Under the pieces are notes generated by a model. It was given only the letters and a program-made list of their open reading frames with translations, had not been told where the DNA came from and searched no databases. Positions 18,296-22,293 of a stretch of DNA of 64,000 nucleotides are shown here, piece after piece (the first letter of the stretch is position 1; each line of letters begins with the position of its first letter). The DNA comes from Candidatus Bathyarchaeota archaeon (GTDB lineage Archaea > Thermoproteota > Bathyarchaeia > TCS64), in NCBI GenBank assembly GCA_026014875.1, contig JAOZHO010000037.1, positions 62,001 through 126,000 on the forward strand, given 5' to 3'. A program made the position numbers and the translations under genes.

Positions 18296-18536
18296 TTCGT
18301 CTTGCGGATACATACACGCGCGCGATAAACATGGAATCCGGAGACCCGAGCCTCAGGGTCAGTTTCCTGCGAGTGCTCGATAACAAGATATGCAGGATTA
18401 TCGCCCCCCACCTCGTCTAGGCACAGTGATGGGATGGCTCACCCACCACCTCCTGTCAACCCGATGAAGCCAGACATGAAAACACCGCCAAACAACAGAA
18501 TGACCCCTGAAAACACCCGGAAACCACTCTTCGAGC

Positions 18537-18569
18537 AATTCAGTAGCTGTTCAGGTGCTATTCAGGTGC
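18537..18569 (-). repeat. Three tandem 11-bp repeats in copy A
   Basis: Leftward units are GCACCTGAATA, GCACCTGAACA and GCTACTGAATT, exactly adjacent, so the period equals about one DNA helical turn. Copy B has the same arrangement with units GCTACTGTTTA, GCTACTGAATA and GCTACTGTTTT. Shared core: GC(A/T)(A/C)CTG. Confidence 0.8.
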
Positions 18570-18636
18570 AAAACAACACCCAAAAAACCCGGAAGAACCC
18601 GCCAAACAACAAAACAAACCCAAATCGACATTCTCC

Positions 18637-18656
18637 AAAAAAAAATAAAAAAACCA
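18637..18656 (-). terminator. Poly-T terminator downstream of the ThiF-like gene
   Basis: The leftward strand has two T tracts of seven to nine residues separated by one A, flanked by GG on each side. Archaeal transcription ends at such U-rich tracts. It lies about 200 bases after the ThiF-like stop codon. Confidence 0.5.
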
Positions 18657-18861
18657 CCGCCTCCCACGCCGGAAACCAAGAAGACCCCCTCTGCCCCGGA
18701 AACGCTTATCATACCCTACCACTCATAAGCCCGCCCCCCACGCCACCATCAAAATACCCCCAACAAGGACCTGCAACACCTCATCGAGACAGAGATAGGC
18801 CCAGCGGAGACCAGCGAGCGGGCTCTGGGACGCCTAATAGTCGCGTCAGCAGACAAAGGGG

Positions 18862-19929
18862 CTAGAGGCCCAGGAGCTCCGCCCTGATCCCCCTCGCAAC
18901 CTCGGGCCCATCGACGCCCTCGATCACCGTCACCCCGCTGCTCAACACGCTCCCCTTCACCGCCCCCCTGACGAAACTCGTGCCGAGCCTAGCCCTCACC
19001 GTGAGAAGATAACCCAGCCCCTCCAACCTGCCATTCAAAGCCTCCAGATCAACCCCCAGATCCTCATCAGGAGAGAAAACGAAAACCCGCCTACCCTCCC
19101 GACCACAGATCTCCTCGAACGAGCCGTGCTTAAGGGGAAACGGCTCAGACACCGGATCAGACCCGCAGACAGGGCACGAATCGACCCTGGCGAGCTCAAT
19201 CCTCTCGAACGATAAATCCTCCAGATCGCAGTACATCAGAGCGCCCGCCAAATTCGGCTTCCTCCCCATGATCAACCTCACAGCCTCAGAGACCTGGATG
19301 CTCGCAATGATACTGATAATAGACGGATGCACCCCCGCAACGGCACAAGTGGGCAGCTCATCATCGGCGATCCCCCCCTGGAAACACTCGACACACGGAG
19401 TCTCCCCGGGCACAATGGTGGAGACACTCCCCACATTCGTGATAACAGCACCAAACACATATGGGATACCCAGCTTCACGCACGCCCGGTTCAGGGCATA
19501 ACGGGGAGTCATCGCGTCGAGCCCGTCCACCACGACATCCATACCCTCCACAATCGCCTCAGCATTCCCGGGAGTCACGCTCATGGGAACCGGATCAACC
19601 TCGATGAACGGATTAAGCCCCCTAACCCTCTCCGCAGCCGCCTCCACCTTAGGATAACCCACCATATCCACGCCGTAGAGATGCTGCCTCTGGAGATTAG
19701 AAGCCTCAACCACATCCCGGTCCACAATCCTGAGGTAGCCCACACCCATAGACGCCAACTGGATCACAATGGAGCTACCCAGCCCACCCACGCCCACCAC
19801 GCAGACCCTCGCATCCTTCAACTTCCTCTGCCCCGAAAGCCCGATGCTGTCGAGAACGATCTGCCTCGAGTAATAGTCGATCTCCGCATCCGAGAACCCC
19901 GGGATACTGAACCTAGCCAATTGCCTCAC
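18862..19929 (-). CDS. ThiF/MoeB/HesA-family adenylyltransferase (E1-like)
   Basis: A 355-residue protein. FSDAEIDYYSRQIVL opens the E1-like fold; GVGGLGSSIVIQLASMGVG binds ATP and VVDGLDAMTPRYALN carries the conserved aspartate. Zinc ligands are CVEC (near 178) and CPVC (near 248). About 90 residues beyond the core form an extra C-terminal domain without a recognised family. E1-like proteins adenylate the C-terminal Gly-Gly of MoaD or ThiS so that sulfur can be loaded. A MoaD-like gene lies 62 bases upstream on the same strand, so molybdopterin or a related sulfur-transfer role is likely. GTG start. Confidence 0.9.
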   Translation of the reverse strand: MRQLARFSIPGFSDAEIDYYSRQIVLDSIGLSGQRKLKDARVCVVGVGGLGSSIVIQLASMGVGYLRIVDRDVVEASNLQRQHLYGVDMVGYPKVEAAAERVRGLNPFIEVDPVPMSVTPGNAEAIVEGMDVVVDGLDAMTPRYALNRACVKLGIPYVFGAVITNVGSVSTIVPGETPCVECFQGGIADDELPTCAVAGVHPSIISIIASIQVSEAVRLIMGRKPNLAGALMYCDLEDLSFERIELARVDSCPVCGSDPVSEPFPLKHGSFEEICGREGRRVFVFSPDEDLGVDLEALNGRLEGLGYLLTVRARLGTSFVRGAVKGSVLSSGVTVIEGVDGPEVARGIRAELLGL

Positions 19930-19991
19930 CCAGTACAGTCGCTGAATGCCTCATTAACATTTACGAATACAACAAAAAGAAAAACCCGGGG

Positions 19992-20270
19992 CTACCCCCC
20001 GCTCACCGCCGGGAGAAGAGCGATAACATCCCAATCCTGGAGCACAGCCTCCAGCTTATCCAAGAAACGATAGTCACGCCCACTCACGTAGATATTTATG
20101 AACCGCCTGGGCCGTCCCCCGTCATCGAAAAGGCGGTCCCTGAACTCCTCGCCATGACTGGACGCCAGTGAATCCAGCACCTCACCCAGGGGGTCAGCCT
20201 CCACGGTTACCCGCTTCTCCCCGGCGATACGGGCCAACACCCCGGCGAGCCCCACGGACACACCCGCCAC
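19992..20270 (-). CDS. MoaD/ThiS-like sulfur-carrier protein
   Basis: A 92-residue beta-grasp protein ending LLPAVSGG. The terminal Gly-Gly is the site of adenylation and thiocarboxylation. The preceding NIYVSGRDYRFL and LQDWDVIALLPA fit the MoaD pattern (N-x-x-x-V-N/G...L-x-D-x-D-x-V-x-x-x-P). It is the natural partner of the E1-like enzyme encoded 62 bases downstream. The GTG start gives an N-terminus (VSVGLAGVLARIAG) slightly unlike classical MoaD, so a start a few codons later is possible. Confidence 0.88.
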   Translation of the reverse strand: MAGVSVGLAGVLARIAGEKRVTVEADPLGEVLDSLASSHGEEFRDRLFDDGGRPRRFINIYVSGRDYRFLDKLEAVLQDWDVIALLPAVSGG

Positions 20271-20369
20271 TAGTCATCCCATCCTAGAAAGCATCCTGAA
20301 GGGAGTTCAACGATCAAGACTGAGAACGATCGATTCTCAATAAACCCTTAATTTAAAATTGATACAATA

Positions 20370-20789
20370 ATGGTTATTCACGAATTCGGGAAAGGTCAAG
20401 GACAGGGAAATACGCTGTTTGACTTCGAAGAAGCTCTGAGAGACATGCTGGAGTTCGCCAACCAATCTATTCTGGACCTCGACCTGTCGGACGTTCATCC
20501 AACTCTCGCAGACCCCCCCAGATATGCCATTACTGGAGGAGGCAAACGGCTGCGACCCATGATGTGTATGCTGTGCGCTGAGGTCGTGGGAGACGATTAC
20601 AGGGATACTAGGGAAGCCTTCCTCGCTCTGGAGTTGATTCATGAGGGCACCCTCGTTCATGACGATATTGTCGATGAGGGGCTCTTCAGGCGTGGCACTC
20701 CTTCGGTTCAGGCAGAGTACGACGCCAAGAGGGGTTGGCTCACCGAGGAGATGATGGGGAAGTCCCTCGGTGTAATCGGGATAGGGTGA
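20370..20789 (+). pseudogene. Truncated polyprenyl diphosphate synthase (N-terminal part)
   Basis: The 139-residue frame has clear prenyl-synthase motifs: GGGKRLRPMMCMLCAEVVG near 58 and LIHEGTLVHDDIVDEGLFRR near 90, including the first Asp-rich motif (DDIVD, 98-102). It keeps homology to about residue 120 (PSVQAEYDAKRG) and then runs into WLTEEMMGKSLGVIGIG and a stop. A full enzyme has about 300 residues and a second Asp-rich motif, both missing. It is therefore probably inactive. It lies between MoaD and FdhD genes, with an AT-rich promoter (TTAATTTAAAATTG at about 20347-20360). Confidence 0.85.
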
Positions 20790-20849
20790 CGGCTCGTTTA
20801 GCGCCTCTCTTTTAGGGGGATCATCCCAGTATAGTGGGGTTGAGGGGTT

Positions 20850-21632
20850 ATGTCGTCTATCGAGGTCAGGGTTCGCCGTTTCGAGTTGGATTCTGGGGGG
20901 TTCCAGGAGAGAGATGACAGGATTGCCGCGGATGCGGCGATCTGTGTCTTTATCAATGGTGAGCTTTTCAGGACGTTGCTTGCGAGCCCTGTGATGATCG
21001 AGGAGTTGGTGGTGGGGCATCTTCGGGGGGAGGGGGTCATCGAGTCGAGGGATGAGTTGGTGAGCGTGGAGGTGACTCCCTTGAAGGTTCACGTGGAGTT
21101 GAAGGGGGAGGTGGACCTGAAGCGTTTGACGATGGGGAAGGTGGATCTCATCACGACTGCTTGCGGGGCTGCGGCTTCTCCGAGTGAGTTGAGGGGGTTG
21201 GGCTTGTCGGTGGCCTCGATGGAGGGGTCGATCGAGGCGGAGAGTGTCTGGTTGATGGCTCGGGAGCTTAACTTGAGGAGTGGCACGTACAGGGAGACGG
21301 GGGGGACCCATGCGGCGATGCTGTTCTCGTTGGGGGGTGATCCGTTGTTCTTCGGTGAGGACGTGGGGAGACATAATGCGGTGGATAAGGTGGTGGGTGC
21401 CGGGGTTCTCGGGGGGGTGGAGTTCGGGGGTTGTGTGTTGGTGTCGTCGGGTAGGCTGTCGGGGGAGATCGTGTTGAAGGCGGCTAGGGTTGGTGTGCCG
21501 GTGGTTGTCTCTGTGGCGGGACCGTTGGAGTCGGGTATCAGGATTGCGGAGTCTGCGGGGATCACGTTGGTGGGGTTCGTGCGGGGGCGGAGGTTGAATG
21601 TGTATACGCATGAGGAGAGGGTTGTGGGGTGA
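20850..21632 (+). CDS. fdhD: FdhD-family sulfurtransferase for formate dehydrogenase-type enzymes
   Basis: A 260-residue FdhD homologue: MIEELVVGHLRGEGVI near 49, TGGTHAAMLFSLGG near 165, GEDVGRHNAVDKVVGAGVL near 185, and VSSGRLSGEIVLKAARVGVPVVVS near 205 (landmarks VGRHNAVDK and SSGRLSGEI). FdhD passes sulfur from a cysteine desulfurase to the molybdenum or tungsten bis-MGD cofactor. The loop that in E. coli reads CGVC here reads ACGAAA, keeping only C105 and losing the second cysteine. No formate dehydrogenase gene lies in the window. Its neighbours are MoaD- and ThiF-like genes on the opposite strand. The coding strand is strikingly G/T-rich. Confidence 0.92.
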   Translation: MSSIEVRVRRFELDSGGFQERDDRIAADAAICVFINGELFRTLLASPVMIEELVVGHLRGEGVIESRDELVSVEVTPLKVHVELKGEVDLKRLTMGKVDLITTACGAAASPSELRGLGLSVASMEGSIEAESVWLMARELNLRSGTYRETGGTHAAMLFSLGGDPLFFGEDVGRHNAVDKVVGAGVLGGVEFGGCVLVSSGRLSGEIVLKAARVGVPVVVSVAGPLESGIRIAESAGITLVGFVRGRRLNVYTHEERVVG

Positions 21633-21689
21633 CTCGGGGGTTGCCGGTTCTCCTGTCGTGAGCGGGGGGGCTGGCGTGGGAAGGGTTGG

Positions 21690-21707
21690 TTTTTTTTATT
21701 TTTTTTG
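21690..21707 (+). terminator. Poly-T terminator downstream of fdhD
   Basis: T8-A-T8 flanked by GG on each side, about 60 bases after the fdhD stop codon. It corresponds to the T tract of copy A and may end the fdhD transcript. Confidence 0.5.
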
Positions 21708-21784
21708 GAGGTGTCGGTTTGGGGTTGTTTTGCGGGTTGTTTTGTTGTTTGGCGGGTTTTTCCTGTTTGTTTCGGTGTTGTTTT

Positions 21785-21817
21785 GCTACTGTTTAGCTAC
21801 TGAATAGCTACTGTTTT
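21785..21817 (+). repeat. Three tandem 11-bp repeats in copy B
   Basis: Units GCTACTGTTTA, GCTACTGAATA and GCTACTGTTTT are directly adjacent and followed by another GC. The 11-bp period and the conserved GC(A/T)(A/C)CTG core match copy A. Confidence 0.85.
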
Positions 21818-22293
21818 GCTTGTACGGCGGGTGGGGGTGGTTTCCGGGTGTTTTTCGGGTTCCTTTTCGTTGAAGGGGTTACGGAAGGGTTTAACCGGCG
21901 TATTTTTTCTTGGCTTCATGCTCTTTTTTTCACTCCGATACGTGCCCGAATTGAACAAATGTTTTGATTCGCGACTGTTCGATGGTGGCTTCGATGGGGG
22001 TTGCTTATTAATGGGTGGAGGGTCGATTTGGGGGTCTGGGGTTTATCTTTGATTATTTCGATTTGGCCTTTTTTGTTTGTTGGCTTTAAAGTGTGTCGTT
22101 TGTTTCGATGGTTTTTGTATTTTTTAGGGGTTGTTTTGTGGGGGGTGCTGGTTTTTTTAAAGGGTTATGTTAATAGTTGCTTTCGTTGTGTGCTTGTTTT
22201 GGGATGTTTGTGTTAAAATCTTTGATATAACTAATAAATGAATCGACGGGGTATTTTCTCTATAGCTAGCATTATTTGAATGGAGGGTATTGT

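What the first reader, a model, noticed from the sequence alone, without database searches (positions are those of the whole stretch)
18513..21860. Sulfur/molybdenum cofactor genes bracketed by inverted G/T-rich elements with 11-bp triple repeats
The region 18513-18675 (leftward) and 21671-21860 (rightward) share a series of blocks in the same order: GGCGTGGGA, a T8-A-T8 tract, GGAG-GTCG, TTTGTTGTTTGGCGGGTT, GGTGTTGTTTTGC, three 11-bp tandem repeats and GTGGTTTCCGGGTGTTTT. Each copy sits just after a gene and in that gene's sense direction. They enclose ThiF-like, MoaD-like and FdhD genes. Candidates: paired 3' regulatory RNAs, the ends of a 3.3-kb mobile cassette, or chromatin/protein-binding arrays in phase with the helix. 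I know no named element like this.
Basis: seen in the sequence. Interest (0 to 1): 0.72.

Follow-up and report, generated by a model that had tools for sequence, protein, structure and literature searches.

The report
Curved-DNA repeats at archaeal gene edges
The two matching G/T-rich blocks are two of about 45 copies of an undescribed repeat in a Bathyarchaeia genome; each pairs a transcription-stop-like tract with helically phased, probably bent DNA beside tRNA and housekeeping genes, and may act as a gene-boundary element.

Summary
In detail: the two blocks align far above shuffled controls. The 'bracketed cassette' reading is wrong. ThiF and FdhD keep this divergent order in three relatives checked, without flanking elements. 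The blocks belong to a dispersed family: about 45 copies here, about 30 in the Bathyarchaeota MAG BS750m-G27, few or none in most other relatives. A typical copy has a poly-T or C/G-hairpin terminator-like start, a G/T-rich block, one to nine or more (usually three) 11-bp units GCTACTGWWTD, and often a tail. Eleven copies lie immediately 3' of tRNA genes, always on the same strand; one follows RNase P RNA; others follow CDSs or stand upstream of divergent housekeeping genes. No RNA structure, terminal inverted repeats or reverse transcriptase was found. G/T alternation has a 10.25-10.5 bp period, and predicted bend is about twice that of other intergenic DNA. Divergent homologs in two other genera keep this bend; a decayed copy lost it. 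The genome encodes two archaeal histones. Best reading: a repeat family combining termination with phased curved DNA that positions a nucleosome or architectural protein at gene edges. Spread by an unknown mechanism; function untested.

The parts
18463..18731 (-). Left copy of the repeat, full profile extent
   Evidence: nhmmer profile hit, 174.7 bits, E 3.4e-52; BLAST 73% identity to the right copy
18637..18653 (-). Left T7-A-T9 tract (terminator-like 5' end)
   Evidence: sequence; a terminator-like stem ends just before it at 18659-18676, though the scan as a whole is near shuffle expectation
18570..18636 (-). Left G/T-rich helically phased block
   Evidence: period 10.5, p 0.012 for T-G signal
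18537..18569 (-). Left array of three 11-bp units
   Evidence: sequence; tandem repeat 18538-18569 period 11
18513..18530 (-). Left tail block GTGGTTTCCGGGTGTTTT
   Evidence: sequence and alignment
21622..21880 (+). Right copy of the repeat, full profile extent (overlaps the last bases of FdhD; homology proper from about 21672)
   Evidence: nhmmer profile hit, 188.2 bits, E 2.6e-56
21690..21706 (+). Right T8-A-T8 tract (terminator-like 5' end)
   Evidence: sequence; 48 of 63 copies have a T-tract or C/G hairpin here versus 8% of controls
21707..21784 (+). Right G/T-rich block with 10.25-10.5 bp periodic T/G alternation
21785..21817 (+). Right array of three 11-bp units GCTACTGTTTA GCTACTGAATA GCTACTGTTTT
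   Evidence: sequence; tandem repeat 21779-21820 period 11
21837..21870 (+). Right tail block, also about 10.75-bp periodic in the consensus
18862..19929 (-). ThiF/MoeB-family adenylyltransferase gene upstream of the left copy
   Evidence: Pfam PF00899, 6.1e-69
19992..20270 (-). MoaD/ThiS-like gene
   Evidence: Pfam PF02597, 7e-10
20850..21632 (+). FdhD gene upstream of the right copy
   Evidence: Pfam PF02634, 2.6e-63

Best explanation
The two blocks are copies of a dispersed intergenic repeat family of Bathyarchaeia that marks the edges of genes. The 5' end is a terminator-like poly-T tract or C/G hairpin and faces the neighbouring gene. It is followed by 100-170 bp in which G-runs and T-runs alternate once per helical turn, with one to nine or more (usually three) 11-bp units GCTACTGWWTD. 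Proposed mechanism: the first part stops RNA polymerase coming out of a tRNA, an RNase P RNA, a CDS end or a divergent promoter. The phased, intrinsically curved part then anchors an archaeal nucleosome or another architectural protein, making a boundary between transcription units. Shown here: the repeat family, its anatomy, its position 3' of stable RNA genes, the periodicity, and predicted curvature kept in diverged homologs. Inferred: termination, histone or protein binding, boundary function. The copying mechanism is unknown.
For: About 45 copies in the genome. 11 tRNA-adjacent copies, all on the 3' side and same strand, Poisson P about 4e-9 by a conservative count that assumes roughly 2400 intergenic gaps. 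A copy directly after RNase P RNA in G002 (L074). 48 of 63 copies have a T-tract or C/G hairpin at the 5' end versus 8% of control intergenic DNA; only 1 of 63 has such a T-tract on the other strand. Periodicity: T-G power 4.7 at 10.25 bp versus 1.3-1.6 in control intergenic, G/T-rich and coding sets; 28 of 31 copies have p<0.05 in the part before the array; the tail shows it separately, p 0.0005. Predicted bend 88 deg per 100 bp versus 47 in controls. Diverged homologs in G007 (with a different 11-bp unit) and G016 keep 86-89 deg versus 41-44 in shuffles, while a decayed G001 copy after the orthologous tRNA-Val does not, 49 versus 47. Two archaeal histone genes are present. Archaeal nucleosomes are published to prefer 10-bp periodic WW dinucleotides offset 5 bp from SS, and nucleosome-free A/T-rich gene edges are flanked by high occupancy (PMC3691661).
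Against: Function is untested: no RNA-seq, MNase or binding data. Periodicity and curvature are shared by descent within the genome, so copies are not independent; only the cross-genus homologs and the tail are partly independent tests. G020 (p 0.08) and the left window copy (p 0.25) do not reach significance for bend, and G007_L128 and G016 do not for periodicity. WW/SS antiphase is partly automatic. The wedge-model values were recalled from memory. Boundary function should be general, yet G001 and G003, which share the genus, have lost or lack the family. Many copies lie upstream of divergent genes rather than after a 3' end. The 5'-versus-3' distance asymmetry is not significant without the tRNA copies (p 0.08). 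Nucleosome positioning does not explain the strict G/T strand asymmetry.
Confidence: 0.4

Rival explanations
1. A non-autonomous, parasitic small interspersed repeat (BOX- or RUP-like) that expanded in the ancestor of this genome and BS750m-G27, lands preferentially next to terminators and gene edges, and has no host function; the T-tract and hairpin are its target or its end.
For: Copy number is lineage-specific: about 45 and about 30 versus 3 decayed in G001 and 0 in G003. The FdhD site is empty in G001. Orthologous copies (mean 0.81 identity, 9 pairs) are hardly more alike than paralogs (0.79), as after a burst shortly before the species split. Pneumococcal BOX elements show the same kind of burst, modularity and nesting (PMC3049150). 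Another repeat family nests with it in G002.
Against: No terminal inverted repeats, no shared sharp ends, no target duplication seen, no reverse transcriptase in the genome. Sites and neighbours are kept between species while the sequence turns over. Curvature is kept in other genera with diverged sequence.
Confidence: 0.33
2. A binding-site array for a sequence-specific protein: the 11-bp units are direct repeats (iteron- or parC-like) read by a dedicated DNA-binding protein that organises or segregates the chromosome; the G/T block is its spacer.
For: CTACTG core and 11-bp register are nearly invariant across 31 copies, aligned almost without gaps. Three units is the commonest number (41 of 65), range 1 to 9 or more. 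A long 22-bp array breaks the assembly at the C26/C39 contig ends.
Against: Unit sequence differs in G007 while the layout is kept. Seven copies show a single unit. No candidate binding protein was sought. Strand-specific placement 3' of tRNA genes is not expected for a segregation site.
Confidence: 0.17
3. A 3' regulatory or stable RNA transcribed with the upstream gene.
For: Both window copies lie in the sense direction of the upstream gene; the antisense strand of the right copy is mildly structured (z -2.1).
Against: Consensus fold -0.58 kcal/mol with 3 pairs, no Rfam match in the window; sense-strand folds no better than shuffles; many copies have no sense gene upstream.
Confidence: 0.05
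4. The two copies are the ends of a mobile cassette carrying ThiF, MoaD and FdhD.
For: Inverted arrangement around the three genes.
Against: The divergent ThiF-FdhD pair is ancestral in the genus and family without the elements; single copies occur all over the genome.
Confidence: 0.01

Closest known systems
BOX elements of Streptococcus pneumoniae (small interspersed repeats)
   Same: Intergenic, many copies, modular with a variable number of a middle tandem unit (boxB), nesting with other repeat families, spread in a past burst (PMC3049150)
   Different: BOX is predicted to fold as RNA and has terminal inverted repeats linked to an IS; here no RNA fold, no inverted repeats, an 11-bp unit instead of about 45 bp (boxB length from general knowledge), helical phasing, and preference for tRNA 3' ends
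STAR elements of Staphylococcus aureus
   Same: Short GC-rich direct repeats (consensus TNTGTTGNGGCCC) in intergenic DNA, variable number, lineage-specific abundance, function and spread unknown (PMC3532100)
   Different: 14-bp unit with spacers of at least 40 bp, no helical phasing or curvature and no link to stable RNA genes in the passages read, different domain of life
Archaeal nucleosome positioning code (Thermococcus kodakarensis, Methanothermobacter)
   Same: 10-bp WW periodicity offset from SS, next to A/T-rich nucleosome-free gene edges (PMC3691661)
   Different: There it is a diffuse genome-wide preference; here it is concentrated in a discrete, multi-copy, sequence-conserved repeat; occupancy not measured
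Plasmid iterons and parC-type 11-bp direct-repeat arrays
   Same: 11-bp direct repeats in helical register (from general knowledge)
   Different: Dispersed through a chromosome beside many genes, and embedded in a longer phased G/T block; no binding protein known

Membership tests
MITE or BOX/RUP-type non-autonomous transposable repeat | Terminal inverted repeats | tested here: not met
   No inverted repeats of 10 bp or more in either window copy with flanks
MITE or BOX/RUP-type non-autonomous transposable repeat | Target site duplication at a precise empty site | tested here: inconclusive
   FdhD site is empty in G001, about 320 bp extra here, but flank divergence of about 20% hides exact ends
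MITE or BOX/RUP-type non-autonomous transposable repeat | Many dispersed copies with lineage-specific amplification | tested here: met
   About 45 here, about 30 in G002, 3 decayed in G001, 0 in G003
MITE or BOX/RUP-type non-autonomous transposable repeat | Base-paired secondary structure | tested here: not met
Retroelement (group II intron or other RT-driven repeat) | Reverse transcriptase in the genome | tested here: not met
   PF00078 search of the 96% complete genome: none
Archaeal nucleosome positioning sequence | 10-10.5 bp periodic WW/SS alternation above background | tested here: met
Archaeal nucleosome positioning sequence | Histone genes in the genome | tested here: met
   Two PF00808 matches over cut-off
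Archaeal nucleosome positioning sequence | Histone occupancy in vivo or in vitro | not testable with these tools
   No MNase or reconstitution data
Transcription terminator | T-tract or hairpin directly 3' of genes, strand-specific | tested here: met
   48 of 63 copies versus 8% of controls, T-tract on the other strand in 1 of 63; 11 copies directly after tRNAs, same strand. Not all copies follow a 3' end
Transcription terminator | RNA 3' ends at the tract | not testable with these tools
   No transcriptome available
Composite mobile cassette around ThiF-MoaD-FdhD | Bracketed segment absent or displaced in relatives without the ends | tested here: not met
   Divergent ThiF-FdhD pair kept in G001, G003, G006 without the elements

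The most novel reading that the evidence does not exclude
A sequence-conserved archaeal boundary element: a multi-copy unit that fuses a transcription terminator to an intrinsically curved, helically phased array which anchors chromatin, and so insulates tRNA, RNase P and ribosomal protein genes from their neighbours. It would be a discrete insulator-like DNA part, propagated as a repeat family.
Probability: 0.25. Interest if true: 0.8.

Novelty: new variant of a known kind. Interest (0 to 1): 0.55.

Why it matters
Small interspersed repeats of bacteria are usually read as parasitic or as RNA-level signals. Here the property kept across genera, while the sequence itself changes, appears to be a physical one: helical phasing and curvature. 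It is placed at the 3' ends of tRNA and RNase P genes and next to housekeeping promoters. If the element positions nucleosomes or stops polymerase, it gives an uncultured archaeal class a discrete, testable chromatin boundary, and an example of repeats domesticated as genome architecture. If it is parasitic, it is a structurally unusual repeat family that targets gene edges without inverted repeats or RNA structure.

Tried and rejected
Structured RNA: RNAalifold, single folds and Rfam gave nothing. Retroelement primed on T-runs (suggested by the poly-A-like end on the other strand): no reverse transcriptase. Terminal inverted repeats: none. Viral origin: array pattern 0 hits in viral contigs; a second core pattern gave one hit that is an A/T-rich chance match. 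Spread outside Bathyarchaeia: genome-wide pattern hits in Bacteroidetes, Polaromonas and Colwellia share only the 11-bp motif, not the element, and look like chance or unrelated arrays. Replication-strand orientation: both orientations are mixed along contig C50, so dropped. Phase-keeping indels: only a modest excess of 11-bp gaps (263 versus 189 and 136 for 10 and 12), explained by unit number.
Full report
OBSERVATION. Their local alignment score is 146 against a maximum of 47 in 1000 dinucleotide-shuffled pairs. Composition therefore does not explain them.

NOT A PAIR BUT A FAMILY. A search of the window's own genome (2.50 Mb, 51 contigs, 96% complete) with the right copy gave 49 BLAST matches; several of them are neighbouring units of one array. 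A sequence-only model of 31 copies gave 49 matches here, 31 in G002, 3 weak ones in G001, 9 diverged ones in G007, and one each in G016, G020, G015 and G023. It gave none in the other 63 of the 71 genomes searched. Merging split hits leaves about 45 copies. G002 is the Black Sea MAG Candidatus Bathyarchaeota BS750m-G27: its contig C111 and JADHWM010000060.1 have the same length, and the overlapping stretches read the same.

ANATOMY. From 5' to 3' a copy has: (i) in some copies, a short hairpin-like motif such as GTAGCATATTATAAGGGTTTT; (ii) a poly-T tract or a C-run/T-rich loop/G-run hairpin; (iii) about 70-80 bp of G and T; (iv) 11-bp units GCTACTGWWTD, three in 41 of 65 copies, two in 16, one in 7, nine or more in one; (v) often a tail GGTTTCCGGGTGTTTTTCGGGTTCCTTTCGGTGTTTGGCGGTGTTTTC, which resembles block iii. 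One array of at least nine units runs into contig ends C26:1 and C39:123444, which probably join there. T-tract or C/G hairpin at the 5' end: 48 of 63 copies, against 8% of control intergenic stretches; a T-tract on the opposite strand is seen in 1 of 63.

POSITION. Eleven of 46 listed copies lie within 212 bp 3' of a tRNA gene, on the tRNA's strand; none lies on the 3' side in opposite orientation. The conservative expectation is 0.9 (P about 4e-9; it assumes about 2400 intergenic gaps). Further copies follow tRNA 3' fragments. In G002 a copy follows RNase P RNA (RF00373). The remaining copies follow CDS ends (for example FdhD and ThiF) or stand upstream of divergent genes; reading the translated sequence, these include S15, L10e, a YhbY-like and a TusA-like gene (my assignment from sequence). 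The 5' end is nearer a gene than the 3' end overall (medians 74 and 313 bp, p 0.01), but not significantly so without the tRNA copies (p 0.08).

HELICAL PHASING AND CURVATURE. In the 31-copy alignment the T-minus-G profile before the array peaks at 10.5 bp, and 28 of 31 copies exceed their shuffles at p<0.05; the tail consensus peaks separately at 10.75 bp, p 0.0005. Mean power near 10.25 bp is 4.7 in copies versus 1.3-1.6 in intergenic, G/T-rich and coding controls. WW and SS dinucleotides are offset by about 6 bp, which is partly automatic. A wedge model with parameters recalled from memory predicts 88 degrees of bend per 100 bp, against 47 in controls. Copies within the genome are homologous, so these tests are not independent. 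The better test is across genera: G007 homologs, whose 11-bp unit differs, and the G016 homolog keep 86-89 degrees against 41-44 in shuffles. The decayed copy after the orthologous tRNA-Val of G001 does not (49 versus 47). The G020 homolog is borderline (69 versus 41, p 0.08), and the left window copy is not significant (71 versus 57, p 0.25).

EVOLUTION. ThiF and FdhD are divergent neighbours in G001, G003 and G006, without elements, so the copies do not bound a cassette. G001 lacks the FdhD copy. Nine sites are shared by this genome and G002, with upstream flanks mostly 83-92% identical, yet the orthologous cores are only 0.81 identical, about the same as paralogs at 0.79. Either the family burst shortly before the split, or copies are exchanged or rebuilt at fixed sites. 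In G002 and G016 a second repeat (GGTATGAATAAGTGCTCC...CCCCCCCCTCCCCCC) nests in or beside copies.

MECHANISM. Steps shown: repeat family; strand-specific placement after stable RNA genes; terminator-like 5' end; periodicity; predicted curvature kept across genera; two histone genes present. Steps inferred: the 5' end terminates outgoing transcription, and the phased part anchors a nucleosome or architectural protein. Published archaeal data fit: nucleosomes follow a 10-bp WW/SS code and flank A/T-rich nucleosome-free gene edges (PMC3691661). The main rival is a parasitic repeat with a preference for gene edges, of the BOX kind (PMC3049150). The two can both be true if parasites were co-opted.

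COMPARISON. The kind of thing is known: small modular interspersed repeats such as BOX and STAR. Membership in the MITE class fails on inverted repeats and secondary structure. The combination of helically phased curved DNA, 11-bp units and tRNA 3' placement in archaea matches no named element known to me or found in the held literature; those searches were few and cover open-licence papers only.

Noticed in passing
window 20370-20789: Chimeric gene remnant: the N-terminal part of a polyprenyl synthase runs into a C-terminus matching the neighbouring geranylgeranyl-reductase-like protein of G001 (L088:3866-5062), so a deletion of about 2 kb fused the two; a threonine-synthase-like gene present in G001 between the pair (L088:6495-7589) is also missing here.
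   Followed up: partly
L060, L061, L063, L072, L076, L145, L150, L153 (G002) and L048 (G016): A second dispersed repeat family, GGTATGAATAAGTGCTCCTTTTGACATGAT...GATGCATGACCCCCCCCTCCCCCC, nests in or beside copies of the described repeat; a G001 relic sits upstream of L10e (L158).
   Followed up: partly
L105 (G000:C50:337900-342140): tRNA 3' fragments and intact tRNAs a few kb apart, each fragment followed by a copy of the repeat: looks like nested integrations at tRNA genes.
   Followed up: no
L012, L015, L016, L034, L063, L073: A further short repeat, CCCATACTCTTTTCTTCACTTC, lies beside several copies.
   Followed up: no
L032:1-80 and L031:3317-3445: 22-bp tandem array TACTGTTTTGCTACTGAATGGC runs off both contig ends; C26 start and C39 end probably join and the true array length is unknown.
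   Followed up: partly
L118, L124, L128, L132 (G007): Homologous elements in another genus with a C/G hairpin start and a different 11-bp unit (about ACCGCACGGCA).
   Followed up: partly
window 18300-18860: The methyltransferase-like gene that follows ThiF convergently in relatives (seen in G001, G003, G016) is absent here: a synteny break next to the left copy.
   Followed up: partly
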